A stretch of 20,126 bases of DNA. It comes from a virus. Shown piece after piece: positions 2,486 to 19,174 of this stretch. Under the pieces are notes generated by a model. It searched no databases. It was given only the letters and a program-made list of their open reading frames with translations, and was not told where the DNA came from. Position 1 is the stretch's first letter, and each line of letters opens with the position of its first letter. The DNA is taken from positions 1 to 20,126 of IMG/VR virus record IMGVR_UViG_3300008469_000026; one strand, 5' to 3'. The translations under genes were made by a program, and so were the position numbers.

Positions 2486-4708
2486 ATGGTTGAAAATATG
2501 GAAATGGTTGATGTGAACTCAAGAGTAAAGCTTCAGCCAACATGGAAAAATGAACCAACATACTCTGATCTATCTGGAGACAAAATAGAAGCACAATCGG
2601 CACAAGATGTGGTTCGAAGTAATGTGCTAAGATGGAGAGAAATAAGAGATGGTGGTCCAAAAGTTGAAACAAGAGCAGGAAGAAGTACCACAAGGCCAAA
2701 AGTTGTTAGAAAGCAATATGAATGGAAATATCCTGCATATGAAGATCCATTTCTGAATACTCCTGATATGTTTACAGCTCTTCCAAGGACAGGCGAAGAC
2801 AATGAGACAGCCAAAAAAAATGGATTATTATTAAATTATCAGTGGGAAGAAGAAGTCGGAAAAACAAGGCTAATAAAAGCCATAGTTAGAAAGATTGTCG
2901 ATGATGGAACTGTTATTACTAAAACTGGATGGGACGCAGAATACGGTACAAAAATAGTTGAAAAAGAAGAACCAATATATGCAGAACCAGAAGAAAGTAT
3001 GGCAATAATACAAGAATCTGTACAGAATGGTCAGATGTCTCAAGAAGAAGCAAAAGCTATGATTGAGATGGGACAACCTGTACAAAAAGGAACAAAAAAA
3101 ATATGTGTTGAGGAAGAGGTGTTAGTTAAAAACAGGCCAACATATTCAGTAAGAAATATAATGAATGTTTTTATTGACCCTACATGTAATGGTGTAATAG
3201 AGGATGCAAAATTCTTAATAGAAGAATATGACACATCATATGCAGAACTAAAAAAAGATGAATACACAAAAACAATAAACATACTTGAAGATGGTACAAA
3301 AGAAATAATTGAAAAAGGTATGTATCATAATATAGATAAAATAAATCTAGAAAATGCAGAAGAAATTGTTGATGAATATGAAACAGATTCAAGAAATAGT
3401 TTTCAGTATAGCGACAAAGCTAGAAAAAAAATAAGAGCAAATGAATATTGGGGATATTGGGATATACAAGGAGATGGCATATTGGTTCCAATTGTTGCTA
3501 CATGGATAAATGGTGTAATTATAAGGATGGAAGAAAATCCATTTCCTCATAAAAGAATACCATATAGCGTTGCATCATATCTTACTGTTGTTGACAGTAC
3601 TTATGGTGAACCAGATGCAGAAGTGCTGGAAGAAAATCAAAATTCTATAGGTAAAATGATTAGAGCTGCAGAAGATATAACTGGAACTCAAGCTGTTGGA
3701 CAAGAATTCATTGATGAAAACTTTTTTGGAATAACACAAAGAAATGCATATGAAAAAGGAAATGATGTATATTATAGAAGTGGATTCGATCCAAGAACTG
3801 CAATATACAGAAGAAAAGTGGAGCCAGTAGATAGCACTGTGTTTAAAATGATAGACATGCAACAAAAAGAAGCAGAAAGTATGTCTGGAACAATAGCGTT
3901 TAATGGCGGTAATGGCGGTTCTATTATGAGTGGTTCAGCTACTGGCATAAGAAGTGCTATGGATGCAACAAGTAAAAGAGAGTTATCTATTCTAAGAAAT
4001 ATAAGTGAATTGCTTAAAGATATGGCAAGAATGACAATAACAATGAACCAGTCATATATGCCTGAAGAGCAAATAGTAAGAATAACAAATGATAAACATA
4101 TTTTTATTCGCAAAGATGATTTGTCTGGAAAAATAGATATAAAATTAGAAATAAGTACTCCTGAAAAAGATAATGAAACTGCAGATAAGCTTATGACTCT
4201 TATGCAGACTAATGCAGCAAATATGGATCCAAAAATAGCTGCTATGCATTATGAAAAAATAGCAAGGCTGTGGAAGATGCCAGATCTTGCTGATAAAGTT
4301 GCGAACTTTAAACCTGAACCTAATCCTGTTCAAGAGCAGATACAACAATTACAATTAGAAAATGCTAGATTAGAGAATGAAAAACTCAAAGTTGAAATGA
4401 CTGAAGCATATAGCAGAATGGAAGAAAGAGTATCAAGAACGACAGAGAATGAAGCTGACATAAGAAAGAAAAATGCTGAAGCAGCATTGAAAGAAGCAGC
4501 AGCCGGAAAATTAACTTCTGAAACTGATGAACTTGATAGAAAATTTATGAAAGAAATGACTGGACAAGGAAGAAGAGAACATATAGAAGACCAAGAATTC
4601 AATGACAGAGCAAAGCAAGAAGACAGGATGGATAAACATTCTATTGAAATGGATAAGCTTGATAAAATGCATATGATGCAACTATACAACAATAAAAAGG
4701 ATAAATAA
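2486..4708 (+). CDS. Portal protein (740 aa), N4/P22-like podovirus type
   Basis: The portal forms the dodecameric ring at the capsid vertex through which DNA is packaged and ejected. ATG 2486 follows AAGGGGA at 2472-2478. Length fits large podovirus-type portals (N4 gp59 is of similar size). Family-typical features: a WEEEVGKTRLIKAIVRKIVD segment, FIDPTCNGVIEDAKFLIEEY (a Dxxxx-type clip region), EYWGYWDIQGDG, and ENPFPHKRIPYSVASYL then YGEPDAEVLEENQNSIGKMI, a strong portal hallmark. A Gly-rich loop (GGNGGSIMSGSATGIRSA) follows near residues 475-490. From about residue 611 the protein becomes a Gln/Glu/Lys-rich coiled coil, like the internal barrel helices of P22-type portals. It overlaps the next gene by 1 nt, so translation is probably coupled. 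Identity is from motif recall, not from a search. Confidence 0.92.
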   Translation: MVENMEMVDVNSRVKLQPTWKNEPTYSDLSGDKIEAQSAQDVVRSNVLRWREIRDGGPKVETRAGRSTTRPKVVRKQYEWKYPAYEDPFLNTPDMFTALPRTGEDNETAKKNGLLLNYQWEEEVGKTRLIKAIVRKIVDDGTVITKTGWDAEYGTKIVEKEEPIYAEPEESMAIIQESVQNGQMSQEEAKAMIEMGQPVQKGTKKICVEEEVLVKNRPTYSVRNIMNVFIDPTCNGVIEDAKFLIEEYDTSYAELKKDEYTKTINILEDGTKEIIEKGMYHNIDKINLENAEEIVDEYETDSRNSFQYSDKARKKIRANEYWGYWDIQGDGILVPIVATWINGVIIRMEENPFPHKRIPYSVASYLTVVDSTYGEPDAEVLEENQNSIGKMIRAAEDITGTQAVGQEFIDENFFGITQRNAYEKGNDVYYRSGFDPRTAIYRRKVEPVDSTVFKMIDMQQKEAESMSGTIAFNGGNGGSIMSGSATGIRSAMDATSKRELSILRNISELLKDMARMTITMNQSYMPEEQIVRITNDKHIFIRKDDLSGKIDIKLEISTPEKDNETADKLMTLMQTNAANMDPKIAAMHYEKIARLWKMPDLADKVANFKPEPNPVQEQIQQLQLENARLENEKLKVEMTEAYSRMEERVSRTTENEADIRKKNAEAALKEAAAGKLTSETDELDRKFMKEMTGQGRREHIEDQEFNDRAKQEDRMDKHSIEMDKLDKMHMMQLYNNKKDK

Positions 4709-5268
4709 TGAATGATATGAGAAATGGTTTAAACCAAATGCCTGGGCAAGTTCAACGAGGAGAGCCTCCTTTTGACAGAAATGCTGCCGCAATGGCTTCA
4801 AAAAACATAACTGATAGTGCAGCAATAAATGATCCAAGAAGACAAGCTGAAGATAACCCTGCAAACAGTGAACAACCTCCTGTGGCTCAACAAGATAATC
4901 AGATACCATCAATGGAAAGGATAACTCAAAAACTTCCTGAAATAATTGATGAAGCATCTAAATATCTTAAGCCAAAAGATATGGAAAAAGTTAATCAAAT
5001 GTTGAATAAAGCTGTTGCTTCTGGAAATCCTGCAAATGTAATGCAAGTATTAGACACAATAACACCAGCAGTAGTTGAAGGAAGGAAGGCTGTTGAAGCT
5101 AAAATGCAGGCTCAGGTAGGACAAGCTCCTAGTGTGCAACCTACAGGAGAAGATATGCAAAATGGTCTTGGGGTTCCTAATGATGTTGGACCAAATGGAG
5201 GATATACAAGAAGTCAAGATGCAGATGGACTAATGCAAGCAACATTAAGAGCAAATATGCCAAGATAG
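4708..5268 (+). CDS. Hypothetical portal-linked protein (186 aa)
   Basis: ATG overlaps the portal stop (TAATG), with AAAAGGA at 4695-4701 about 6 nt upstream. Three zones are visible: a disordered Pro/Gln/Asn-rich N-terminus (about residues 1-70), a helical centre (MERITQKLPEIIDEASKYLK and the following helices, about residues 71-140), and a Gly/Pro/Asn-rich C-terminus with TGEDMQNGLGVPNDVGPNGG. It contains no Cys or Trp. Coupling to the portal suggests a partner of the portal or an internal head protein. No family is recognised. Confidence 0.75.
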   Translation: MNDMRNGLNQMPGQVQRGEPPFDRNAAAMASKNITDSAAINDPRRQAEDNPANSEQPPVAQQDNQIPSMERITQKLPEIIDEASKYLKPKDMEKVNQMLNKAVASGNPANVMQVLDTITPAVVEGRKAVEAKMQAQVGQAPSVQPTGEDMQNGLGVPNDVGPNGGYTRSQDADGLMQATLRANMPR

Positions 5269-5290
5269 GCGTCATTACTGGTTCTTCAGT

Positions 5291-5318
5291 GCTATCATTA
5301 AGGATAGCTTAAGAGCTA
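5291..5318 (+). promoter_or_regulatory. Two mutually exclusive hairpins
   Basis: GCTATC (5291-5296) can pair with GATAGC (5303-5308) over a 6-nt loop. Alternatively TAGCT (5305-5309) can pair with AGCTA (5314-5318) over TAAG. Both need bases 5305-5308, so they exclude each other. Stems are short, so this may be chance. Confidence 0.3.
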
Positions 5319-5324
5319 AATGAT

Positions 5325-5330
5325 TATAAT
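5325..5330 (+). promoter_or_regulatory. Possible -10 box (TATAAT)
   Basis: A perfect TATAAT lies in the intergenic region about 95 nt before the small head gene. No good -35 hexamer is seen 16-18 nt upstream, and perfect TATAAT is expected by chance in AT-rich DNA. If real, transcription would start near 5337, just before the 5343-5365 hairpin. Confidence 0.25.
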
Positions 5331-5342
5331 TCAATAAAGGTT

Positions 5343-5379
5343 AACTTCTGCTGTTACAGAAAGTTTTAATATTTTTTTT
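5343..5379 (+). terminator. Candidate intrinsic terminator after portal module
   Basis: AACTTCTG (5343-5350) pairs with CAGAAAGTT (5357-5365), giving eight base pairs with one bulged A and loop CTGTTA. A mixed T-rich stretch and then T8 (5372-5379) follow. The stem has only three G-C pairs and the T8 lies 6 nt beyond it, so termination would be partial at best. Confidence 0.4.
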
Positions 5380-5424
5380 GGCAATTCCTAAAAAGGGTAT
5401 CCAATACAAGAAGAAAGGCATATT

Positions 5425-5817
5425 ATGCAAAACGAAGCAATGGGTTCTCAAGAAGAACTTACTCTTAATCAACAATTAGAAGAGATAGATCAAGAAATAG
5501 AAATGTTCAAAAGAACAAAAGAATTTCATGAGAGTCTTTTAGCCCTCAAAGAGAATGAGGATTTTAACAGAGTTATCACCGAAGGTTACTTTGGTGAGGA
5601 AAAAGAAAGATTGGTTTCTTTAATGGTTGAACCATTAAGCCCAGCAAGTCCAGAAGATTTCAAAGAATATGTTAGCAGAATAGATGGAATTAGACATCTT
5701 GCTAGTTGGATAGAGTTTGCATATAGACGCTCAAGAGACATGGATGCGAAAATTGATGCCGCACAAGAGTTCAGAAAGAGTGTAACCGCAGAACATGCAG
5801 AAAAAGTAGCGGAGTAG
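5425..5817 (+). CDS. Small conserved helical head-region protein (130 aa)
   Basis: ATG 5425 follows AAAGG at 5414-5418 with 6-nt spacing. The protein is almost entirely helical: a coiled N-terminal helix (QLEEIDQEIEMFKRTKEFHE), then LLALKENEDFNRVITEGYFG and KERLVSLMVEPLSP, then IDGIRHLASWIEF. The NEDFNRVITEGYF...LVSLM...P pattern is one I recognise from small proteins encoded next to capsid or portal genes in many tailed phages, where the function is not established. It ends 4 nt before the scaffold-like gene. It may be an assembly cofactor; this is inference. Confidence 0.78.
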   Translation: MQNEAMGSQEELTLNQQLEEIDQEIEMFKRTKEFHESLLALKENEDFNRVITEGYFGEEKERLVSLMVEPLSPASPEDFKEYVSRIDGIRHLASWIEFAYRRSRDMDAKIDAAQEFRKSVTAEHAEKVAE

Positions 5818-5821
5818 AATT

Positions 5822-7117
5822 ATGGCAAATGAAGAAGAAATAGATTATGAAAATATGACTGATGAAGAATTAGATTCATATCTGGACAATATGGAAGAAG
5901 AAGAAAACCTTGATGACAACTCAGGAGAAGAAGCTGAAGAAGATTCTCATGAGGACCAAGATGGTGAAAGTCAAGATGAAGGTGAGGCTGATGCAGAATC
6001 AGAAGATCCAGAGGCTGACAATGAGGACACAGATACTGGTTCTGAAGAGCTAGATGAAGAGCAAACAGAAAATGACTCTGGCGAGGGTGATCAGGAAAGC
6101 TCTGAAGAAGGCAATGAAGAACAGGATGAAAACACTCAAGATGAAGACTTTACAAATAATTCCGCTGACGAAGAAGAATCCGATAGCACTGCAGACGATG
6201 CATCTAAAGGAACAACTTTAAGTCAAGAAGATTTTGATAAATATAAAAACTTCTACGAAATAGTAACCAGTGATTTTAAAGCTAATGGAAAAACTGTCAA
6301 AGGAATAACAGATCCTAAGAAAGTTGTGATGAATAACCAAAAAGCATATGGAGTCGAAGAAAAATTTAAAGCATTAAAACAAGTAAGACCAAAAACTTCA
6401 GCAATGGATAAAAGAGGACTTCTTGACGATGAAAACTTTAATTTAATGATGAGCATATGGGATGGTGATCCTGAAGCCATAAAGGCACATTTAAAATCAA
6501 AAGAATTGGATCCTTTTGAATTAGAAATGGATGAAATTAAATACTCCAACCAAAATCAGATGGCTACTCAAAGAGAGCTTGGTATCGAAGATACACTGAT
6601 GATGGCTAAAAATTATGGAGTAGAAGATAAGGTAAGTAAAGTATTTGGTGAAGAATGGGATGATGTAGGATTTGACAAGATAATCAAAAATCCTGGTGCA
6701 AGAGCTATAATTATGGAACACATGACTGATGGAAGATATGCCGAAGTAACAGATAAAATATCTGAGCTATCAAGAATTGACGTCAATGGTTCATTCGATG
6801 CTATGGATTCATATGATAAATATGATTATGCTATGAAAGCAATAGCTGAAGAAAGAAGAAACGCTCAAGAACCAGTTTCTCAAAATAGACTTAACGAAGA
6901 AAAAGTCAATGAAGAGAAAAGAAAGATTGCTGAGAAACAAGAACAATCCGAATATCAAAACAAACTTGAGATAAAAAAGAGAAAAGCAGATGAAGAGAGA
7001 AAAAAGGCTACATCTTTAAGCGGGAAAAAAACATCAAGAACTCCTAAGAAAAAAGAGATTGATGTTTTGAAGCTATCAGATGAAGACCTTGATAATATGC
7101 TTAACTCTTGGGGATAA
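5822..7117 (+). CDS. Scaffold-like protein with highly acidic N-terminus (431 aa)
   Basis: ATG 5822 follows GGAG at 5811-5814. Residues 1-128 contain no Lys or Arg and are dominated by Glu, Asp, Ser and Asn, so this part should be disordered and very acidic. The rest is helical: TLSQEDFDKYKNFYEIV and DFKANGKTVKGITDPKKVV (about 132-170), then GDPEAIKAHLKSKELDPFEL (about 215-234), motifs I associate with the scaffold-type protein encoded just before N4-gp56 family capsids. The C-terminal 90 residues are a Lys/Glu/Arg-rich helix ending in a basic stretch. DEELDSYLDN near residue 15 is echoed by DEDLDNMLNS at the C-terminus. Directly upstream of the capsid gene (15 nt), it probably guides procapsid assembly. 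A tape-measure label is sometimes given to relatives, but 431 aa and the position favour scaffold. Confidence 0.82.
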   Translation: MANEEEIDYENMTDEELDSYLDNMEEEENLDDNSGEEAEEDSHEDQDGESQDEGEADAESEDPEADNEDTDTGSEELDEEQTENDSGEGDQESSEEGNEEQDENTQDEDFTNNSADEEESDSTADDASKGTTLSQEDFDKYKNFYEIVTSDFKANGKTVKGITDPKKVVMNNQKAYGVEEKFKALKQVRPKTSAMDKRGLLDDENFNLMMSIWDGDPEAIKAHLKSKELDPFELEMDEIKYSNQNQMATQRELGIEDTLMMAKNYGVEDKVSKVFGEEWDDVGFDKIIKNPGARAIIMEHMTDGRYAEVTDKISELSRIDVNGSFDAMDSYDKYDYAMKAIAEERRNAQEPVSQNRLNEEKVNEEKRKIAEKQEQSEYQNKLEIKKRKADEERKKATSLSGKKTSRTPKKKEIDVLKLSDEDLDNMLNSWG

Positions 7118-7132
7118 TAAAAGGAAAATATT

Positions 7133-8407
7133 ATGGCAATAGGATTTAATAACCCTACTGGGGTTCAGTTTAATGATAAGTTTTGGTCGAAAGTAGCTGT
7201 TAGAGAAGCAAAGAAAAATATCGTTTTTTCACAAATTGGTGACAAAAGCGTTCAACCTAAGCATTATGGTGATACAATGCGTAAATATCATAATCTACCT
7301 ATTTTGCATAAATTAAATGTTAATGATCAAGGTATTGACGCTAACGGTGTATCTTTAGTTAGTGGAAAATGGTACGCATATGATGCTGCTGGAGCAATGA
7401 CAGGTGATGCTGCTGGATATGCAACATCTGATTTAGCAAAAGCTGCTGCAGGAGCAACAGGAACAATTAAATCTGGTGATGGTAACTTGTTCGGTGGTGA
7501 TACTGATTATGCAGTTGTTAAAGGTGCTTTCCCATCATTAAGAGAAGTTGGTGGAAATGTAAACAGAGTTGGTATGACTCGTAAAGAAATAACTGCAACA
7601 GTTAAAGAGTTTGGTTTCTACCTTGAGTATACTAAGAAGATGATTGATATGGATACTGAGAAAAATGTTCTCAGAGATATATCAAGAGAAGCTGGTAGAG
7701 CTCAAGCAGAATTAAGAGAAGCACAGATCCAAAGCGATTTGCTTGCTGCATCTGCAGTAAACAGAGTTTTTGCTGGTGACGCATCAACAATGGCTGAAAT
7801 TGGTTCTGATGATCTACCTACATTTGAAGGTATTAGAGCGATGGAGCTTTCATTGAAAGTTGCTAGAACTCCTAAACAAAGTAAAATGTTAACTGGTTCT
7901 ACAAAAGTTGGAACTCAACCTATTTCTGCTGCATATACTGCATATGTAGGATATGAGTTGAACCCAACATTACAAGACATTAAAGATGCTGATGGTAAAA
8001 AACAGTTCATAAAAAAAGCTGAGTATGCTGCTGCTGGTCAAACTATGCAGGGTGAAACAGGTATGATTTCTGAAACTAGATTTATCGAAGTTGAAGATAT
8101 GCAAGTTTATAAAGGTATGGGTGCTGATAGTACTGATGCTACAGATGATGTTGAAGTAGCTAACAGACATGTTGGTTCTAATGGAAACTATGATGTATTC
8201 CCAATTCTTTATGTTGGTGAAGATTCATTTGGTACTATTGGATTTGAAGGTGATGTTATGAGACTTCAAAATGCTAAACCAACTCCAATTCCTGGTGTTG
8301 ATCCTTATGGTAAAACAGGTACAGTTGCTGCCTCATACTTCTACGGAATGATGATCACAAGACCTGAGAGAATCAGACAAATTGCTTGTGCTGCTAAGAA
8401 ATCTTAG
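7133..8407 (+). CDS. Major capsid protein, N4-gp56 family (424 aa)
   Basis: The HK97-fold shell protein. ATG 7133 follows AAAAGGA at 7119-7125. The N-terminus carries the family signature: KFWSKVAVREAKKN (residues 17-30), then QPKHYGDTMRKYHNLPIL and LNVNDQGIDANG (41-72). Further matches are FGFYLEYTKKMIDMD (160-174), REAQIQSDLLAASAVNRVFAG (196-215), QPISAAYTAYVGYEL (262-276), and the C-terminal DPYGKTGTVAASYFYGMMITRPERI (390-414). Length agrees with N4 gp56 (about 400 aa). An Ala/Gly/Asp-rich insert at about 75-128 probably forms a surface loop. GCT and GGT codons seem more frequent than in neighbours, as expected for the most expressed virion gene. A strong hairpin follows at 8434-8460. Confidence 0.94.
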   Translation: MAIGFNNPTGVQFNDKFWSKVAVREAKKNIVFSQIGDKSVQPKHYGDTMRKYHNLPILHKLNVNDQGIDANGVSLVSGKWYAYDAAGAMTGDAAGYATSDLAKAAAGATGTIKSGDGNLFGGDTDYAVVKGAFPSLREVGGNVNRVGMTRKEITATVKEFGFYLEYTKKMIDMDTEKNVLRDISREAGRAQAELREAQIQSDLLAASAVNRVFAGDASTMAEIGSDDLPTFEGIRAMELSLKVARTPKQSKMLTGSTKVGTQPISAAYTAYVGYELNPTLQDIKDADGKKQFIKKAEYAAAGQTMQGETGMISETRFIEVEDMQVYKGMGADSTDATDDVEVANRHVGSNGNYDVFPILYVGEDSFGTIGFEGDVMRLQNAKPTPIPGVDPYGKTGTVAASYFYGMMITRPERIRQIACAAKKS

Positions 8408-9263: not shown

Positions 9264-11363
9264 ATGGTAACAATGGATGATGTGACAAGTGGATTAATAG
9301 ATGGAGATGGACATTTCGATAAGATGATGAATGCATTAAACATTCATCTTAAAAATGCACATGAATCACAACTAATAACTAACGAACAAGTTGGTACAGC
9401 ATATTCTTCAGCTATTCCGGCACTTATTCATGAGGCTGTAAATTTTGAACTACAAAAAGATTTAATAGCAGCACAAATAGACAAAGCTGTTGCAGATGCA
9501 AAAACAGCAGAAGAACAATTTGAGATATCAAAATCACAAAATGCATTAGAAAGAGCCAAAGCTATAGCTGAAATAAATAAAGAATATGGTTATGAATATA
9601 CAATTGTTAATGGACAAATAGTAATTGGTAATGATACTGGTCTTGGTAAAATTGATGAAGAACGTAAGCTTGTAAAACAACAAGTTTTAACAGAAACAAA
9701 TAATACTGAATTGGTCAGGGAAAAAACAGAATCAGAAGAAATACAAAACAAAACAGATGGAATGTTGAACAATCAGATAGAAAAAATAAAGGCAGACATC
9801 GTAATTGCACAAGAGCAAGCTGAAATAGCTAAATCTCAAGCAGACAGAGAATATGCACAAATGATTGCGAGCTTGGGAAAAGAACTTGGATATACATACG
9901 ATTTCGATCTTGAAGGAAATATTGATAGAACATCATTATCTTCATCGGGAAATGGCAAGCTTGATTCTGAAATTAATTTACTGAAACAGCAAGTTTTGAC
10001 AGAAGTTAACAATACTGAATTAGTTAAAGAAAAAACAGAATCTGAGTCTATGCAGAACAAAACAGATGGAATAATAGATAATCAAATAGCTAAACTTGTT
10101 AAAGATGTAGAAATAGCAGAAGAACAACTTTTGCTATCTAAATCAGAATTAGCTTTAGCAAGAAGTAAAGCTATTGCAGATATAGATAAAAACTATGGAT
10201 ATAATTATTCGCTTGATGCAGAAGGAAACATAAGTGTAATTGATTCTTCAAATGATGGTAAGCTAGATGCAGAGATTGATTTATTAAGACAGCAAGCTCT
10301 TACTGAAATCAAAAATACTGAACTTGTTAGAGAGAAAACAGAATCAGAAGCTATGCAAAATCAAACAGATGGTGTTATTGACAATCAAATAGAAAAAATG
10401 GTCAAAGATATAGAAATAGCGTCTCAACAAGTAGAAATAGCAAAAACAAATAATTCACTTGAAAGAGCTAAAGCATTAGCAGAAATAAGCAAACAGTATG
10501 GATTTGAATATACAATAAATGAAACAACTGGAGAAATAAATGTAACAAATTCTACTGAAAATGGTAAATTAGATAAAGAATTGTCACTACTAACTCAACA
10601 AATTCTTACAGAAACAAATAATACTTCACTTGTTCAGAATAAAAGTAATTCTGAAGCCAAAAATAATGCAGATGATGGAGTAATAGATAATCAAATAGAA
10701 AAAATAAAAGCAGACATTAATCTATCATCTCAACAACTAGAAATAGCAAAATCTCAATCCAATAAAGAATATGCTCAAATGCTTGCAACTTTAGATAAAG
10801 AACTTGGATACACATATGAGTTCGACTTGGATGGCAAGATAGATAAAACATCATTATCTTCATCTGGAGATGGAAAAATAGATGAAGAGATTAAATTGTT
10901 AAAACAACAGACTCTTACAGAAACAAACAATACTGAATTAGTTAAAGAAAAAGCTGATTTGTCCAAACAACAAGTTGATACAGCAAAACTACAAACATCT
11001 CAAGAAAAAGCAAAAACTATAGTTTCTATAGAAAAAGAATATGGGTATAACCACACAGAAACAGATGGAGTTATCGACATTGGTTCAACAACTGGTTTAG
11101 GAAGAATAGACAAAGAGCTCTTGAAAATTCAAGCAGAAATAAATATTCTTACAGAACAACTTGAAACAGAAAAACTACAAAATGATGAAAATGATGGTGT
11201 TCTTGTAAACCAAATAAAAAAATTGAAAGAAGAAGAAAGACTATTATATGTTGAAAGAGTAGAAAAAGATAAAGAAGCTGCAGCACTAGGAATGGATGAT
11301 GTTGTAAAAAATAACAATATTGTTAGCGAATCAATATATACACCTAAATACATAAAGGATTAA
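9264..11363 (+). CDS. Fibrous virion protein with about 102-aa repeats (699 aa)
   Basis: ATG 9264 follows AAGG at 9253-9256. Residues 1-70 form a non-repetitive N-terminal domain (GTAYSSAIPALIHEAVNFELQ). The rest is a series of repeats, each a helix (ERAKAIAEINKEYGYEYT), a short beta hairpin around G/D residues, GKIDEEI and LLKQQ, then LTETNNTELV, QNKTDG, NQIEK and a second helix. Anchors at residues 143, 246, 347, 449 and 552 give periods of 101-103 aa, with a degenerate sixth copy. There is no Cys, no membrane helix and no signal peptide. Related helical-repeat proteins with KQxxLTE segments occur in other phages as uncharacterised virion proteins. Position between capsid and tail-tip genes suggests a tail or neck fibre, or an internal core protein. 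The function is not known. Confidence 0.82.
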   Translation: MVTMDDVTSGLIDGDGHFDKMMNALNIHLKNAHESQLITNEQVGTAYSSAIPALIHEAVNFELQKDLIAAQIDKAVADAKTAEEQFEISKSQNALERAKAIAEINKEYGYEYTIVNGQIVIGNDTGLGKIDEERKLVKQQVLTETNNTELVREKTESEEIQNKTDGMLNNQIEKIKADIVIAQEQAEIAKSQADREYAQMIASLGKELGYTYDFDLEGNIDRTSLSSSGNGKLDSEINLLKQQVLTEVNNTELVKEKTESESMQNKTDGIIDNQIAKLVKDVEIAEEQLLLSKSELALARSKAIADIDKNYGYNYSLDAEGNISVIDSSNDGKLDAEIDLLRQQALTEIKNTELVREKTESEAMQNQTDGVIDNQIEKMVKDIEIASQQVEIAKTNNSLERAKALAEISKQYGFEYTINETTGEINVTNSTENGKLDKELSLLTQQILTETNNTSLVQNKSNSEAKNNADDGVIDNQIEKIKADINLSSQQLEIAKSQSNKEYAQMLATLDKELGYTYEFDLDGKIDKTSLSSSGDGKIDEEIKLLKQQTLTETNNTELVKEKADLSKQQVDTAKLQTSQEKAKTIVSIEKEYGYNHTETDGVIDIGSTTGLGRIDKELLKIQAEINILTEQLETEKLQNDENDGVLVNQIKKLKEEERLLYVERVEKDKEAAALGMDDVVKNNNIVSESIYTPKYIKD
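9540..11240 (+). repeat. Five to six tandem coding repeats of 303-309 nt
   Basis: The segment encoding LTE(T/V/I)(N/K)NT starts at 9690, 9999, 10302, 10608 and 10917, giving intervals of 309, 303, 306 and 309 nt. All are multiples of 3, so the frame is kept. Copies 2 and 5 are far more alike (YAQM, KELGYTY, TSLSSSG in both) than adjacent copies are, and copies 1 and 6 share a TGLG(K/R)ID segment. This implies block duplication rather than only single-unit gain. Confidence 0.85.
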
Positions 11364-11735: not shown

Positions 11736-14700
11736 ATGTCAGAAAATATATTAGAACCACAAGAGACAGAAGTTGTAGAATCAAAAGATATTGAATCTAC
11801 TGTTGTGGTTCCTGAAATGGAGTTAGAAGCAGAAGAAACAGGAATAGAAACATATGTTACGCCAAAAGAATACACTCTTGTCGGAGATGATATATATATT
11901 CCAAAGCTATATGATGATGCTCCTGCGTGGCTAAAAGATCTCGTAAATGTTGTTACAAATGCATCAATTGATATAAGAGATGAATCTATTATGCAGAATA
12001 TAAGTGATTTAATAGAACAAATTAAAAATATAACTGTTCCACTGAATCAATATACTGAAGAGATAATATCAAGAAATACTGCTAGAAGTAAACTAAATGC
12101 AAAAGTCACTACATTAGACAGCAATCTGAATACAAAGACAGGAGAAATAGATTCAAGAATAGTCAAAATAGAAGAAACATATGTCGATGAATCAAGAGCA
12201 AGTGCTATATCTGCAGATGTAATTGCAACACAAATAAATGATGGTGATACTCTTCTTGGTTCCACTGTTGCAGATATAAAAAAGTCATATACTGATTTAA
12301 ATACATCAAGAGCTGGAGACTATAAATCTCTTGAAAGTATGATAACTGGAGGATTAGATTCTGAGGCTTTGGCAAGAGCTTCTGCAGTAGAAACTCTTGA
12401 TACATATGTAGGTATAGATGGTAGTGGTAATGCTAGTGGCACAGGAATGCTGGCTGATATACAAATATTGCAAAAGCAAAACGATGGAGTTATAGAAACT
12501 ATGACTGGTATCTATGATGTTATGTCAGGAATAGAAAGTCCGAATACTGATACTGATAATGATGAACTTTTGACAAATGCGTATCCATATGGATTATGGG
12601 TTCCTTTAGAAGGAAATGAAGACCCTAGTGCAACCAACATAAGTCTAATAGATGATTTAAAAAGAGACAATAATGGAAATGTAGTTACTGATAACAATGG
12701 CAATACGACCCCTATATCTCATTTTCATGATTTATTGCCAGGTACTCTTTACCATAATACTAGTGCAGATACCTACTGGGAATATAATTACGACAGCGAT
12801 CAAGCACTAGTATGGGCTGAAATATCACAAGCAGTGTTTGCAATTGGTAATATAGAAACAAGGGCTATGCACACAGGTGATGTGTACATAAAGTATAGTA
12901 CTTCTGATACTGGTTATAAGTCGTATGAAAGGGCTTATAAGTTTATAAAGACTACTTCTGACGTTACAGATCAGCACCACAGTACAGATAGTGAAGGATT
13001 CACATGGGCACTTGTAACAGATACTGATGCACAAAATGCTTATATAGTTGCACTAAATGCTTTCGATTTGGCAGATGGCAAAAGAAGAATATTTGTAAAT
13101 TTAGGAGAGCACGGTACGCCTAGTGCACCTTATGATATTGGAGATTTGTGGTTAATTGATACTGAGAGAACAATATATGGAAGAGTTGCTAAAAAAGGCG
13201 ATATTCTTAGATGTACAGAAACCAAAGGTAAAAATGCCTTATATGAAGAAAATGACTGGGTTCTGGCTTCAAGTTACTTTGACGAAATAAAAAAAGAACA
13301 TGATGCTCTTGAAGAATGGAAAACAGAAGAGTATAGTAAACTCGTGACACAAGTAGATAAAAAGGCTGGTAGTTACTATCAAGACACACAACCATGGCCA
13401 GAATACACCGAAATTTCTGATAATGCTGATTATAATGAGAATGTAGGTGACTTGTGGAAAAGTACTTATACTGATAACAATAAAAATATAGACTCGAATG
13501 GGCACTTAGGAAAAAACACAGAATATATATATTCAAAAGAACCAAATGGAGATAAGTTTGATTACAAGTGGGTTGAAACAGAAGTACCAGATATAGTATT
13601 TGACACTATTGATACTAAAAAATCTATATACGTAGGTAATTACGAACCAAATCCAAAAAAACCTGATAAAGTTGAAGTTAGAGATATGTGGATAACGGGA
13701 GACAAACCTAAGGATCCAAAGTATGATGCTAAAGAAGTGTACACTTATACAAAAACAGGAACTAATCCTGATGTTTATGGATGGGTAAAATCTTTAGATT
13801 ATGCAAATAGTGGAGAAGTTGCAGAAATCAAAACCGGTTTAACAGATGGAACTATAGCATTTAACCTGAGTGCAGCTCATATAGGTGATGCAAATAGTGC
13901 TCTATTATCTAATTATGTTAGTGACCAAGCAGACAAAAAAGTTAATATATACAGTGGTGAAGATAGTCCAGAAGTGCACAGCTTTCCTGTATTGACTGAT
14001 GGTAGCAATGCTGTACAAAATGGGGATATATATATATGGAATACAACAGAAAAGGCTAATGGTGAAGGAAGTGAATATGATGTAGTAAAAACTTATAAGT
14101 ATGACAAGAAGAACAGTACTTGGGGATCGCCAATACAAAATAACAAAAATATAACTGCATTAGCTGATTTAGCAGATGGTAAAAGGACTGTGTACAGTGG
14201 TTCAATATTGCCTGAAGATGAAGTTGATGGACAAGGAAACAAATACGTACCACAACCGAGAGACTTATGGATACCAGAGAAGGCTGATGCTTGGGTAAGT
14301 GGTACTGATTATATTAGTGGTTCTATAGTATATGATAAAACAAATTACAAAACCAGTAAGAATATTGTAGGGTCTGTTAATGAACCATCCTCTACAGAGG
14401 GTATTGCTGATGGTTGGGTAAGGTACTATGAGCCAGGAGAAGTGTACCAATATTTGAAGCACAAATGGGAATTAGCTACTAAATATAGTGAAGATATTGC
14501 TAAATTCACAAATACATTTAATGACAGAGTAGCTACATTACAGAACCAAGTGGATGGACAGGTGAACTACTATTTCTTTAAAAAAGAATCTGGCGAATCT
14601 ACGAATGATGCTATTAATAGAGTTACTGATTATTATCATTGGACTGACACACAAAAAATTAATAACAGAGGCGATATAGCTTATAATGACGATAACGAAA

Positions 14701-17036
14701 ATGCTTATTGTTACGATAATAAAATGGAAGAAGATCATGCATGGAAAAGCATAAATTTAACTGAAAATGCTGGATTACTAAATGCACTTAAAATAGCTAA
14801 AAAAGCTAAGAACTTAGCAGATAAAAAGGTTTCTGTATTTTTTGCATTGGAGTCTGTTGGTTTACCAGGAAAGAAGCCAGGGGAAGTATATAAATCAAAA
14901 ATTGATAATAACGGAGATGACACTGGCTTAGATGCAGACCTAAAAATGCCATATTATTGGTATTGCACTGATGTCACAAACAAAGGACTTCGTTATCATG
15001 ATGGCACAGAATGGGTTTCTGTTGCTCTTAATGGAGAAAATGACAAAGATGTTCTGCAAACTATGCGAGTTAAAACAATAAACAAAAAAATCGCTATTGA
15101 TTATTACATACGAGAATACCGATGGGATGAATCTGAACATAAAGGACAGTGGCTCACTAGAACAGATGGTGGGTTAATGGCCAGAAGTCAATGGGCTGTT
15201 GACTTAGACGCACAAGTAAAAGGTGACGATGGTAAGGTGTTTGGAGCAAACAGTAAACTTAAAAGCGTAGTTGAGACTAATACTAATGGTAAAGTTAAAG
15301 CTGGTCTAGAGTATGATAATCATATTACTATAGATGATAAGACATACACATCTGGTTTTGGAATGACAAATTGGTCTGCCGATGGAGATCCAGCTACAAG
15401 TGAGTTTTGGGTAAATGCTGATATGTTTAGAGTAAGTAATGGTAATGGTACAATAAAACCATTTTCTATTATATCAGGTAGCCCTTCTAAACTTATAATG
15501 AATGGAAGTGTAAGCATTAACTCTATAGTGGATAATCCTACTGATGCCAATGAAGTTTATGTAGGGCGTTATCTAGGAGAACATGATAATAATAATATAC
15601 CTGCAGGAACTAAAGGAGATACATACTATAATATTGATACAAAAGTAGTAATGTACTACAACGACTCAGCTTGGGTAAGTACAAAAGGGTTTACACCTGC
15701 TATACTAAAAATAACAAACACTAGTCCTGTATTTCGTATGGACGATGTAGGTAACATAACTCCTACAGCAGGTATAACGCTAAATACGACAAAATCAGGA
15801 ATTGACGACACTGTATCTTATAAGTGGTATAAAGATGGTGCTGAAATTAGCGGAAAAACTAGTGGTAGTTTGTTGGTTCCAATAACTGAGTACAGTAATA
15901 GTACGACACACACATTTAAATGTATAGCTACTGGCACTATTTATGGTGTTACTGGACAAACAAGAGAAGATGAAATAACTATTCCTAGGCTTGATTCGGC
16001 TACGAATAACCCTAGAGTTGTGCTTAGCAATGAGAACATGACATTTCCAGCACCTGTGTCTGGGTACTCAAATATTGGTTTTACAGGCGGTAGTTGTGCT
16101 GTTTCTGCTTATATAGGAAGTACTGCACTAACCTACGGAACAAGTGGTGCAAATACTTTTAACATTGCAATAACTGCTTCAAATGTGACTGTTGATAGTA
16201 GCAATAATGTAATAAATGCTCCTACAGCAATGAGTGCAGATGCAGGTTATGTAGATATAGATGTTACGCTACGGAATAGTGACGGTTCAGCACTAGACAC
16301 TATAACTAAAAGAATAACTTATAGTTTATCTAGAGAAGGTTTAGCAGCTCCTATATTTTATATAACTAATACAGATTCTAAGTTTATTAAAGGTAAAGAT
16401 GGTTCAATAAATCCACCAAATATACCGTTAGATACATCTACAAATTTAGACGCTATAACTTCATACGCTTGGTATAGTAGTACAGATGGTGGTTCTACCT
16501 GGAGTAATGATGCGATAAGTACTGAGGATCATTTAACCGTCGCTAATACCAACTATACTACAAAAATGTATAAATGTACATTAAAGGGTACTTTAAACGG
16601 AGAATCCGTTACTTTAAACGATATAGTTACAATACCGTTGCTTGTAGATGCTAGTGAAGCAATTACTGTTATAAATGGTAATGCTGCAGTACCATTGGCC
16701 ACTACGGCATTAAGTGGTGATTTTACACTACCAAGTGATGGTGTAGACTCAGAAATAACCGTGTATCAAGGTAGCACAAAACTTGCATATGTAAATGGGA
16801 CACCTGCAGCTAATCAATGGACGGCTTCTATAAGCTCTTCTGGATTTAGTGCTGCACCTTCAGCAAGTGGTTCTGCAGATACATACACTGTTATAGCAGC
16901 TTCAAAAGTTATGTTAACTGATAATGCACAAGTTACAGCTACTATTACTGTTAAAGATGCTGCAGGAGTTAGCACTACCAAAACAAGTGTAATTAACTAT
17001 GCATTAACTAGAAAAGGAGATCATAACAAGATGTAA
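11736..17036 (+). CDS. Giant tail-tip/receptor-binding protein, N-terminal frame (1766 aa)
   Basis: ATG 11736 follows the previous stop at once. Modules in order: an acidic leader (about 1-40); a DDAPAWLKDLV segment and long helices (about 60-190) like the C-terminal half of lambda J-type host specificity proteins; an array of GDLW/GEVY modules (about 447-1100); a J-like segment with EFWVNADMFRVSNGNG, IKPFSIISG and LIMNGSVSINSI (about 1222-1255); a GDTYYN/W module (about 1277-1315); and two tandem Ig-like blocks (about 1320-1536 and 1537-1762) with WYKDG/KC and WYSS/KC core residues. The protein should sit at the tail tip or as a fibre and bind the host surface. It stops right after YALTRKGD, a place where such proteins normally run on into another domain, and the -1 frame continues at once (see 17014-17036). 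It is therefore probably the first part of a larger protein of about 2480 residues. Confidence 0.85.
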   Translation: MSENILEPQETEVVESKDIESTVVVPEMELEAEETGIETYVTPKEYTLVGDDIYIPKLYDDAPAWLKDLVNVVTNASIDIRDESIMQNISDLIEQIKNITVPLNQYTEEIISRNTARSKLNAKVTTLDSNLNTKTGEIDSRIVKIEETYVDESRASAISADVIATQINDGDTLLGSTVADIKKSYTDLNTSRAGDYKSLESMITGGLDSEALARASAVETLDTYVGIDGSGNASGTGMLADIQILQKQNDGVIETMTGIYDVMSGIESPNTDTDNDELLTNAYPYGLWVPLEGNEDPSATNISLIDDLKRDNNGNVVTDNNGNTTPISHFHDLLPGTLYHNTSADTYWEYNYDSDQALVWAEISQAVFAIGNIETRAMHTGDVYIKYSTSDTGYKSYERAYKFIKTTSDVTDQHHSTDSEGFTWALVTDTDAQNAYIVALNAFDLADGKRRIFVNLGEHGTPSAPYDIGDLWLIDTERTIYGRVAKKGDILRCTETKGKNALYEENDWVLASSYFDEIKKEHDALEEWKTEEYSKLVTQVDKKAGSYYQDTQPWPEYTEISDNADYNENVGDLWKSTYTDNNKNIDSNGHLGKNTEYIYSKEPNGDKFDYKWVETEVPDIVFDTIDTKKSIYVGNYEPNPKKPDKVEVRDMWITGDKPKDPKYDAKEVYTYTKTGTNPDVYGWVKSLDYANSGEVAEIKTGLTDGTIAFNLSAAHIGDANSALLSNYVSDQADKKVNIYSGEDSPEVHSFPVLTDGSNAVQNGDIYIWNTTEKANGEGSEYDVVKTYKYDKKNSTWGSPIQNNKNITALADLADGKRTVYSGSILPEDEVDGQGNKYVPQPRDLWIPEKADAWVSGTDYISGSIVYDKTNYKTSKNIVGSVNEPSSTEGIADGWVRYYEPGEVYQYLKHKWELATKYSEDIAKFTNTFNDRVATLQNQVDGQVNYYFFKKESGESTNDAINRVTDYYHWTDTQKINNRGDIAYNDDNENAYCYDNKMEEDHAWKSINLTENAGLLNALKIAKKAKNLADKKVSVFFALESVGLPGKKPGEVYKSKIDNNGDDTGLDADLKMPYYWYCTDVTNKGLRYHDGTEWVSVALNGENDKDVLQTMRVKTINKKIAIDYYIREYRWDESEHKGQWLTRTDGGLMARSQWAVDLDAQVKGDDGKVFGANSKLKSVVETNTNGKVKAGLEYDNHITIDDKTYTSGFGMTNWSADGDPATSEFWVNADMFRVSNGNGTIKPFSIISGSPSKLIMNGSVSINSIVDNPTDANEVYVGRYLGEHDNNNIPAGTKGDTYYNIDTKVVMYYNDSAWVSTKGFTPAILKITNTSPVFRMDDVGNITPTAGITLNTTKSGIDDTVSYKWYKDGAEISGKTSGSLLVPITEYSNSTTHTFKCIATGTIYGVTGQTREDEITIPRLDSATNNPRVVLSNENMTFPAPVSGYSNIGFTGGSCAVSAYIGSTALTYGTSGANTFNIAITASNVTVDSSNNVINAPTAMSADAGYVDIDVTLRNSDGSALDTITKRITYSLSREGLAAPIFYITNTDSKFIKGKDGSINPPNIPLDTSTNLDAITSYAWYSSTDGGSTWSNDAISTEDHLTVANTNYTTKMYKCTLKGTLNGESVTLNDIVTIPLLVDASEAITVINGNAAVPLATTALSGDFTLPSDGVDSEITVYQGSTKLAYVNGTPAANQWTASISSSGFSAAPSASGSADTYTVIAASKVMLTDNAQVTATITVKDAAGVSTTKTSVINYALTRKGDHNKM
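13074..15030 (+). repeat. Array of degenerate GDLW/GEVY tail-fibre modules
   Basis: At least six diverged protein-level units follow the pattern (D)(G/K)(K)x(I/V)Y-G-x-x-P, then (G/R)D(L/M)W, then (E/D)(V/I)YxY, then W. They begin near 13074 (KRRIFVNLG, GDLWLI), 13357 (GDLWKS, TEYIYS), 13612 (KSIYVGNYEP, RDMWI, EVYTY), 13930 (KVNIYSGEDS, GDIYIW), 14175 (KRTVYSGSILP, RDLWIP, GEVYQY) and 14818 (KVSVFFA, GEVYKS, YHDGTEWVS). Nucleotide identity between units is low, so the array is old. Such Trp-rich modules occur repeatedly in phage tail fibres. Confidence 0.7.
15693..17021 (+). repeat. Two tandem Ig-like blocks of about 220 aa
   Basis: Block 1 (about 15693-16344) and block 2 (about 16345-17021) share the same order of landmarks: ITNT with F downstream, an S-Y-x-WY strand, T-x-K-C, DE/ND followed by ITIP/VTIP, a second beta domain, and a closing ITYSLSREG or INYALTRKG. 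The paired W and C of the first subdomain are placed as in phage Ig-like domains. Such domains usually decorate virions and help weak binding to cell or mucus glycans. Confidence 0.75.
17014..17036 (+). other. -1 frame junction in the giant adhesion gene
   Basis: The 1766-aa frame ends CAT AAC AAG ATG TAA (stop 17034-17036). The -1 frame has its last stop at 17024-17026 and is open from 17027 (CAA GAT GTA, reading QDVNYIFQI) to 19174. The overlap is only 17027-17033. AAAGGAGAT at 17014-17021 is a strong Shine-Dalgarno-like string, though it also encodes KGD. Re-adding one base after 17026 joins the frames. No X-XXY-YYZ slippery heptamer lies in the overlap. Confidence 0.8.
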
Positions 17037-19174
17037 ATTATATATTTCAAATAAATAACGATAAAGATACTGGGCCTCATATATCAGGAAATGATTCTAA
17101 GCCGAATAATTGGTCTGATGACGTAATAGCGACTACAACTGCAAACCCTTATTTGTGGTATGCCAAAGGTACTAGTACTGATGGTGGTACTACTTGGAGC
17201 TGGGGTTCACCTGTTTTAGATACAGCTACACAAATAGCAGAGTTAAAACTGTATAAGTTAAATGATAATACTATGGGTACGGCAGGTACTTACTCGTTTG
17301 CTACTGGTACACTATCTGGTCAAGAAGCTGGATGGACAACTGATGTGCCAAGTTTAGGTACTGACGCTGGAAGCAATGGCGACAAAGTTTATATGGTATC
17401 TACAGTAGTTACAGGGGCTAAAGACAGCGAAGTTACCCCTAATTGGGGAACTCCTGTAGTGTATGCATATAGACAAGACGGAAGTCCTGGACTTGACGCA
17501 TCTATTTACCACTGGAACACTACTAATACTACAGTATCAGAACAAGGGAGAACCATTACAAAAACTAGTGGAGGTAATGGTAATTGGAGTGGGAGTGCAT
17601 ATACTACAGAAAGTTATAAAGATGGATGTAAAGTTACTTTTAAATCAGGAATTTCAGGCGAAATAATGGTTGGCCTAACAGAAAGTCCATCACATTTTAC
17701 AGAAAATGCTGAAAATTATAAGTTTAAAGTAAACCACGACCATTATCTTGGTATATACATTATGCCTGATTGGTATGACTTTGATATACAAGTAGACGAT
17801 TCAATGACACTTGAAATTGAATATAAAGATAATACTATTACTTTTATACTTGATGGAGAAACTATTTTAGATACTACGCTCTCTAAATCTTTTGATTTTC
17901 ATTTAGCTACTGCGTTAAATGTTAATGGATGTTACATTGAAGACATCTCATTCGTATCTTTAGCTAAACAAGGACAAGACGGTAATAGAGGGCCAGGTTG
18001 GTATAGTAATACTACAACTACTAACCCTGTAACAGGAAGCTGGGAGGTTGGTACAAATCTAGATACGGATGCAAAGAATGCTTGTCCTGATAGTATTCCT
18101 GTAGATGGAGATATCGTTACACTTACACATACATACGGTAGTGCTACATACAGTCAAGCTAAAAAGTGGGAAACCAGTAGTGGTTGGGTAGCACCAGGGC
18201 TATATCTAAACGGTGATATGATTATTGATGGCAGTATTGCTGCACATAAAATAAATACAACTGGGCTTATTGCAGAAAATATATCAGCAACAGAAATTGT
18301 AGGTAAAAACATAATAGGTGCTAGAATTACTGGTGCTAATATTAATGGTTCTGTTATAAAAGCTTCCTATTTAGATCTAGATGGAGACTTAGAGGTGCTT
18401 ACTAACTACCATATAAGCACTGCCACTTATAATAGTAACCCATCACTATACACTGATGCTGTATACATTGATTCTGATGATGAGTATCGAATTCCTACTT
18501 TAAGTTCACTATCTGTTGAAGCCGTTAACTACAGAATTGCTCCTTCAGACTATGAAACACAGTTGAAAAATGCAAGCTCTTCCGCAGCTTGGATTGCTGC
18601 TAACGCTATTAATAAGACATATAATGTACCGATTTATAGTTATGACCAAGCTAATGTTAACTCTAATATAAAATTAAGACATCTTGTTCCTTATTTCAAT
18701 ATTGATGAGACTATACTTTATGAAGGAAATTTTACTTTTTGTTACTGTCAAGGTCAAGAAATGTCAGACGATCAGATAGTAACAGCGTATCATGATATGT
18801 ATTTTTATATAGGCAATATACAAGTCTTTCATCTATTTGGAGGCACTAAAGGAGAGGTTATAGGTCCGGTGGGCGATATATACGCTAGTGGTTCAGACGG
18901 AATTGCTACAGTATATTCTCCAGGTGCAAATATGCCATCTATTGTTACTTTAACATCTTATGGATTATCATTCACCGTGACTGTAGATTATCAGACATTG
19001 TTCTATACTCCTACAGTGTCTACTGTGTCTGTTGTTCTTAATGCTACTGGAACTAACCAAAAATTTGGAGCTAATGTTACAGGCAACAATATTAGAATAA
19101 TTATAGGACCTAATTCCTTTACTCCGATAATTAATGTAACTACACCACATATAGTAGTTAATAACTTACTTTAA
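17027..19174 (+). CDS. Tail-tip/receptor-binding protein, C-terminal frame (about 715 aa)
   Basis: The open frame runs from 17027; the first conventional start is TTG 17153 (673 aa), which has no ribosome binding site and sits inside a coding-like stretch (NPYLWYAKGTSTDGGTTWSW), so it is unlikely to be the real N-terminus. Modules: a WYAKGTSTDGGTTW domain; a beta-sandwich (17512-17966) from YHWNTTNTT through SGGNGNWSGSAYTTESY, YLGIYIMPDW, LEIEYKDNTITFILDGE to CYIEDISFVSL, resembling concanavalin-like lectin folds; a GQDGNRGPGWYSN linker and W-rich domain; GDMIIDGSIAAHKI with a beta-helix-like run to about 18400, typical of the end of J-like proteins; and a C-terminal beta region from about 18700 (FYIGNIQVFHL to the end). 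This should be the receptor-contacting part. It lies in the -1 frame relative to the 1766-aa ORF and probably belongs to the same protein, or is a remnant of it. Confidence 0.78.
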   Translation, partial: QDVNYIFQINNDKDTGPHISGNDSKPNNWSDDVIATTTANPYLWYAKGTSTDGGTTWSWGSPVLDTATQIAELKLYKLNDNTMGTAGTYSFATGTLSGQEAGWTTDVPSLGTDAGSNGDKVYMVSTVVTGAKDSEVTPNWGTPVVYAYRQDGSPGLDASIYHWNTTNTTVSEQGRTITKTSGGNGNWSGSAYTTESYKDGCKVTFKSGISGEIMVGLTESPSHFTENAENYKFKVNHDHYLGIYIMPDWYDFDIQVDDSMTLEIEYKDNTITFILDGETILDTTLSKSFDFHLATALNVNGCYIEDISFVSLAKQGQDGNRGPGWYSNTTTTNPVTGSWEVGTNLDTDAKNACPDSIPVDGDIVTLTHTYGSATYSQAKKWETSSGWVAPGLYLNGDMIIDGSIAAHKINTTGLIAENISATEIVGKNIIGARITGANINGSVIKASYLDLDGDLEVLTNYHISTATYNSNPSLYTDAVYIDSDDEYRIPTLSSLSVEAVNYRIAPSDYETQLKNASSSAAWIAANAINKTYNVPIYSYDQANVNSNIKLRHLVPYFNIDETILYEGNFTFCYCQGQEMSDDQIVTAYHDMYFYIGNIQVFHLFGGTKGEVIGPVGDIYASGSDGIATVYSPGANMPSIVTLTSYGLSFTVTVDYQTLFYTPTVSTVSVVLNATGTNQKFGANVTGNNIRIIIGPNSFTPIINVTTPHIVVNNLL

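What the first reader, a model, noticed from the sequence alone, without database searches (positions are those of the whole stretch)
17014..17036. Clean -1 frame break inside a giant adhesion gene, without a canonical slippery site
Protein-level continuity is strong: the upstream frame ends at a YALTRKGD linker, exactly where a new domain is expected, and the -1 frame starts QDVNYIFQI with no usable start for 126 nt. The overlap window is only 7 nt (17027-17033) and contains no X-XXY-YYZ motif (codons are CAT AAC AAG ATG TAA). A Shine-Dalgarno-like AAAGGAGAT sits 5-17 nt upstream, as it does at some recoding sites, and an ATGTAA start-stop lies in the overlap. Options: a real 1-nt deletion (phase-variable or decaying receptor gene), an assembly or sequencing indel, unusual recoding, or termination-reinitiation making two chains.
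Basis: partly seen in the sequence, partly recalled or inferred. Interest (0 to 1): 0.6.

Follow-up and report, generated by a model that had tools for sequence, protein, structure and literature searches.

The report
Single frame lesion in phage fibre gene
A long tail-fibre gene of an N4-like phage, known only from environmental DNA, is broken by a one-base shift of reading frame; relatives carry the gene unbroken and the site has no sign of programmed recoding, so it is most likely an ordinary mutation or an assembly error.

Summary
Window 11736-17036 (1766 codons) ends in TAA at 17034-17036. The -1 frame is open from 17027 to 19174, has no ATG, GTG or TTG until 17153, and takes over the coding signal at the same point. 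The contig is a 20.1-kb IMG/VR fragment of an N4-like (Schitoviridae-type) phage. The gene is a modular Pb4-like straight-fibre protein. Alteromonas phage AD45-P1 and several distinct IMG/VR relatives carry modules homologous to both halves, in the same order, in ONE open frame. Another relative (L014) runs in one frame through the module junction homologous to the break. No IMG/VR relative has a break there. The site has no slippery heptamer, no good tRNA re-pairing and no downstream RNA structure (z +1.2 to +1.6). The SD-like AAAGGAGAT is the codons for Lys-Gly-Asp, and AAAGGAG is no commoner than chance. The downstream frame has no start or SD that could make a second chain. Best reading: a one-base (mod 3) frame lesion in the 17024-17036 interdomain linker, absent from relatives. 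It is either a real recent mutation or an assembly error; reads would be needed to tell which. Recoding is unlikely (about 3%). Interest is low.

The parts
11736..17036 (+). Upstream part of the Pb4-like straight-fibre gene (N-terminal core about aa 1-1265, then Ig-like modules), 1766 aa, ending in TAA
   Evidence: phrog_23593 tail protein E 7e-60; matches AD45 tail protein Pb4 and 18 IMG/VR loci
16671..17023 (+). Last Ig-like module and YALTRKGD linker upstream of the break, homologous to L014 12957-13364, where the frame continues
   Evidence: 30% identity; E 1.4e-6 for the longer query
17024..17036 (+). Interval in which a single-indel frame lesion must lie: -1-frame TAA at 17024-17026, frame-0 TAA at 17034-17036
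17013..17021 (+). SD-like AAAGGAGAT, explained as codons AAA GGA GAT (Lys-Gly-Asp)
17027..19174 (+). Downstream part of the same fibre gene in the -1 frame; starts directly with a module homologous to AD45/L019/L020/L024 modules, ends with a PB4_spike domain and C-terminus
   Evidence: (PF24168 PB4_spike, 4.1e-10, residues 312-417 of P0002)
2486..8407 (+). N4-like head module (SU10/N4 gp59 portal 2486-4708, gp57-like 5822-7117, major capsid protein 7133-8407), all frames intact, identifying the phage type

Best explanation
The two open frames are one tail-fibre gene of an N4-like phage: a Pb4-like straight fibre, with an N-terminal core, Ig-like and other adhesion modules, and a C-terminal spike domain. 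In this one record the gene is interrupted by a frame lesion of one nucleotide (mod 3) in the linker between two modules. As written, translation would stop at 17036 and give a 1766-residue fibre lacking its last modules and the spike; the downstream part would not be made. The lesion is not programmed. It is either a recent spontaneous frameshift in the sampled phage population or a consensus/assembly error. Shown: both frames coding, homologous order, unbroken relatives, no recoding signals. Inferred: that the truncated product is what this sequence makes, and that the lesion is recent or artefactual.
For: Modules homologous to both halves lie in order in a single ORF in AD45-P1 (L002 5863-12468, 2201 aa: P0001 44-1276, P0002 1-430; PB4_spike in the same ORF) and, for the core plus the first downstream module, in L019, L020, L023 and L024/L026. 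L014 (1949 aa, one ORF) carries the same Ig-like module as the one just upstream of the break and reads on through its linker into the next module. The downstream frame aligns with other fibres' modules from its very first codons (QDVNYIF against GGTTDFLF/GGFTDFLF), and the linker length matches relatives to within about one residue, so little more than frame is lost. The coding signal switches frame at the site. All 18 IMG/VR loci with matches (L010-L027, not all independent or complete) keep one frame. No second lesion occurs in 7.4 kb of the gene, as expected for a recent mutation or an error. No slippery heptamer and no structure.
Against: No relative with more than about 55% identity (best segment, N-terminal core) was found for the fibre, and none has exactly this pair of modules side by side, so the comparison is by module, not base by base at the site. 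Typical sequencing indels fall in homopolymers and there is none in the interval. Reads are not available, so mutation and error cannot be separated.
Confidence: 0.93

Rival explanations
1. Sub-case A of the best explanation: assembly or sequencing consensus error in the metagenomic contig; the phage itself carries an intact gene.
For: The rest of the gene and the other recognised window genes are intact; several lineages have intact genes; the fibre C-terminus would be expected to be needed for infection, so a fixed break is costly. Another family member in a metagenomic record, L003 (MT836842, marked UNVERIFIED), also shows a frame break at a repeated module that looks like assembly trouble.
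Against: No homopolymer or long repeat at the site that would explain an error.
Confidence: 0.5
2. Sub-case B of the best explanation: genuine recent frameshift mutation present in the sampled phage (truncated fibre, host-range variant or decaying copy).
For: Clean, single, non-homopolymer lesion in a linker; C-terminal modules of these fibres are highly variable between relatives, so loss may sometimes be tolerated.
Against: Loses the spike domain; no further decay; not seen in any relative.
Confidence: 0.43
3. Programmed or unusual ribosomal recoding (-1/+2 shift or short bypass) that joins the two frames.
For: Continuity of protein modules; very short overlap; SD-like AAAGGAG ending 7 nt upstream of the overlap.
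Against: No X XXY YYZ heptamer. Re-pairing of the tRNAs on AAC, AAG or ATG is poor in either the -1 or +2 direction (at best 2 of 3 pairs, AAG to CAA; reasoned). The downstream RNA is less structured than shuffles (z +1.2 to +1.6). The SD-like motif is the codons for KGD and at chance frequency. No break in relatives.
Confidence: 0.03
4. Two chains: termination at 17036 and independent initiation of a downstream fibre protein.
For: Some relatives (L010, L013) have a short fibre gene that ends after the core and separate genes downstream, and L010's next gene has its own SD and ATG.
Against: Here the downstream frame has no start until TTG 17153 and no SD there; the first ATG (17273) also lacks an SD. 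Either start would cut into a module that is homologous from codon 17027 on. The ATG in ATGTAA is in the terminating frame.
Confidence: 0.03

Closest known systems
'Tail protein Pb4' of Alteromonas phages AD45-P1 to P4 (N4-like; annotated as similar to T5 Pb4)
   Same: Same gene position after the N4-like head module, homologous N-terminal core (26-35% identity), homologous modules and C-terminal PB4_spike in the same order
   Different: Single uninterrupted ORF of 2201 aa; the window's copy is broken into two frames; module content in the middle differs
IMG/VR fibres L014, L019, L020, L023/L024/L026
   Same: Same family core; modules of one or both window halves in one protein
   Different: No frame break; different module sets, only distant protein similarity
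Programmed -1 frameshift of phage tail-assembly chaperone genes (lambda G/GT type, from general knowledge)
   Same: A -1 shift in a phage tail gene
   Different: Those have a conserved slippery heptamer and conserved placement; neither is present here

Membership tests
Pb4-like straight fibre of N4-like phages | Homologous N-terminal core and tail-protein family match | tested here: met
   phrog_23593 E 7e-60; AD45 Pb4 E 3e-40; A1 alignment 35% identity
Pb4-like straight fibre of N4-like phages | C-terminal PB4 spike domain (PF24168) | tested here: met
   39.6 bits against a cutoff of 27, but located in the downstream frame
Pb4-like straight fibre of N4-like phages | One continuous reading frame (usual, but a broken copy is still a copy of the gene) | tested here: not met
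   Stop at 17036, continuation only in the -1 frame
Programmed -1 ribosomal frameshift site | X XXY YYZ slippery heptamer in the overlap | tested here: not met
   None in the last 200 nt of the upstream frame
Programmed -1 ribosomal frameshift site | Downstream stimulatory stem-loop or pseudoknot | tested here: not met
   z-scores +1.18, +1.31, +1.60, weaker than shuffles; pseudoknots not modelled
Programmed -1 ribosomal frameshift site | Conservation of the break in homologues | tested here: not met
   Relatives reach both halves in one frame
Translational coupling or reinitiation gene pair | Start codon of the downstream gene at the stop, with SD | tested here: not met
   First start codon in frame at 17153 (TTG), no SD
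Homopolymer phase-variable gene | Slippage-prone repeat at the lesion | tested here: not met
   No run of 4 or more within 17024-17036; A4 at 17012-17015 lies before the -1-frame TAA
Sequencing or assembly indel | Reads disagree with the contig | not testable with these tools
   No reads held; the record is a 20.1-kb IMG/VR fragment

The most novel reading that the evidence does not exclude
A new, non-slippery recoding signal (single-tRNA -1/+2 shift or very short bypass next to an internal SD-like sequence) that makes a full-length and a truncated fibre from one gene in this phage lineage only.
Probability: 0.03. Interest if true: 0.7.

Novelty: already known. Interest (0 to 1): 0.12.

Why it matters
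Mostly as a caution. In a metagenomic phage record, a frame break at a domain boundary of a giant fibre gene can look like recoding, yet comparison with relatives and the lack of signals point to a plain lesion or error. The gene should be annotated as one interrupted Pb4-like fibre gene, not as two genes. If the break were real in the phage, it would be a natural truncation that removes the spike and so presumably alters adsorption.

Tried and rejected
DNA-level relatives of the site in phage records: none. Close protein relatives of either half in viral contigs: none. Profile search with the last Ig-like module: none confirmed. Bacterial and archaeal genomes with the fibre core: none. The phages nearest by capsid (L004-L009) hold no such fibre in their records (no positive control in those searches). 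Repeats at the junction that could explain a chimeric assembly: none found. AlphaFold of the module after the break was of too low confidence to use (pLDDT 42), although a strand is predicted from its third residue on. No solved structure matches by sequence. Literature searches gave nothing specific to a frameshift in this fibre family. Considered and rejected: reading TAA as sense (frame 0 has further stops straight after), T4 gene 60-like bypass (the downstream frame is homologous from its first codons, so nothing needs skipping), and phase variation.

Full report
Observation. The open frame 11736-17036 encodes 1766 residues and ends ...INYALTRKGDHNKM-stop. The -1 frame has a TAA at 17024-17026 and is open from 17027 to 19174. 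Its first ATG/GTG/TTG is TTG 17153 and its first ATG is 17273, neither with an SD-like sequence in the 20 nt before it. Codon-usage log-odds trained on the contig's genes are positive in frame 0 up to the site and positive in frame -1 after it, with the other frames negative and mostly holding stops. So both sides are real coding sequence and the frame switch is located at about 17012-17036.

Context. The window is a complete IMG/VR record, a fragment of 20,126 bases. It carries an SU10/N4 gp59-type portal (PF23899, 1.3e-93), an N4 gp57-like protein and an N4-like major capsid protein, so it comes from an N4-like phage. The broken gene follows the head module, as does 'tail protein Pb4' in Alteromonas phage AD45-P1. 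The upstream half matches phrog_23593, a tail protein (7e-60). The downstream half carries PF24168, the spike domain of straight fibre protein PB4 (39.6 bits against a cutoff of 27).

Relatives. A profile of the N-terminal core found 18 IMG/VR loci. Several hold a complete fibre gene as one ORF (lengths stop to stop): L014 (1949 aa), L019 (1492), L020 (2051), L023/L024/L026 (1936), L022 = AD45-P1 (2207), L013 (1240) and L010 (1109). In AD45-P1, L019, L020, L023 and L024/L026, modules homologous to the upstream core and to the window's downstream half lie in one frame. AD45-P1 also carries the PB4_spike in that frame. The last module before the break is homologous to an Ig-like module of L014, where the frame runs on through the linker. 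The module after the break aligns with modules of L019, L020, L024 and AD45 from its first codons: QDVNYIF against GGTTDFLF and similar. Linker lengths agree to about one residue. The ancestral gene was therefore most likely one frame, and in this record little more than the frame has been lost.

Tests of recoding. There is no X XXY YYZ heptamer in the last 200 nt. The codons AAC, AAG and ATG give at best two of three pairs after a -1 or +2 move (reasoned). The RNA downstream folds worse than its shuffles (z +1.2 to +1.6; pseudoknots were not modelled). The SD-like AAAGGAGAT is the codons for K-G-D; AAAGGAG occurs five times in the window against 3.8 expected, two of the others in the same K-G-D/E coding context. 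No IMG/VR relative shows a break at this junction. Termination-reinitiation is unlikely because there is no start with SD, and the ATG of ATGTAA is in the frame that ends. Some relatives do have short fibres followed by separate genes, and in L010 the next gene has its own SD and ATG, which shows what a real two-gene arrangement looks like here.

Cause. A single indel must lie between the two bounding stops, about 17024-17036. That interval has no homopolymer of four or more, so slippage at the A4 run at 17012-17015 cannot by itself explain the break, and homopolymer phase variation is not supported. No repeat was found at the junction. There is no second lesion in the 7.4-kb gene and the other recognised genes of the window are intact, which fits a recent mutation or a consensus error. 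I cannot separate these without reads and put them near even, with artefact slightly ahead because the break removes the spike domain of a structural protein.

Verdict. This is an ordinary frame lesion in a Pb4-like fibre gene of an N4-like phage, and the gene should be annotated as one interrupted gene. Novel recoding is not excluded but is improbable (about 3%).

Noticed in passing
L003 (MT836842.1) 4069-4178: A faecal phage scaffold marked UNVERIFIED has a related fibre gene split between two frames inside repeated IFVxQPxxPYxxGDLW modules; it looks like a repeat-related assembly break.
   Followed up: partly
window 11736-19174 and loci L010-L027: The fibre family has a conserved core of about 1265 residues and highly variable C-terminal modules; in L010 and L013 the fibre ends soon after the core and separate genes follow, while in others it runs to about 2000 residues.
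   Followed up: partly
window 9264-11363: A 699-aa coiled-coil-like protein built of several imperfect repeats (each with a 'YGY/LGY...G(K/R)(I/L)D' turn and 'VxEKTESExxQNxxDGxxxNQI'-like stretch) upstream of the fibre; no function assigned.
   Followed up: no
window 11736: The fibre gene's ATG has no recognisable SD within 20 nt, unlike most neighbours; it starts 1 nt after the preceding gene's stop (11734), so it may be translated by coupling.
   Followed up: no
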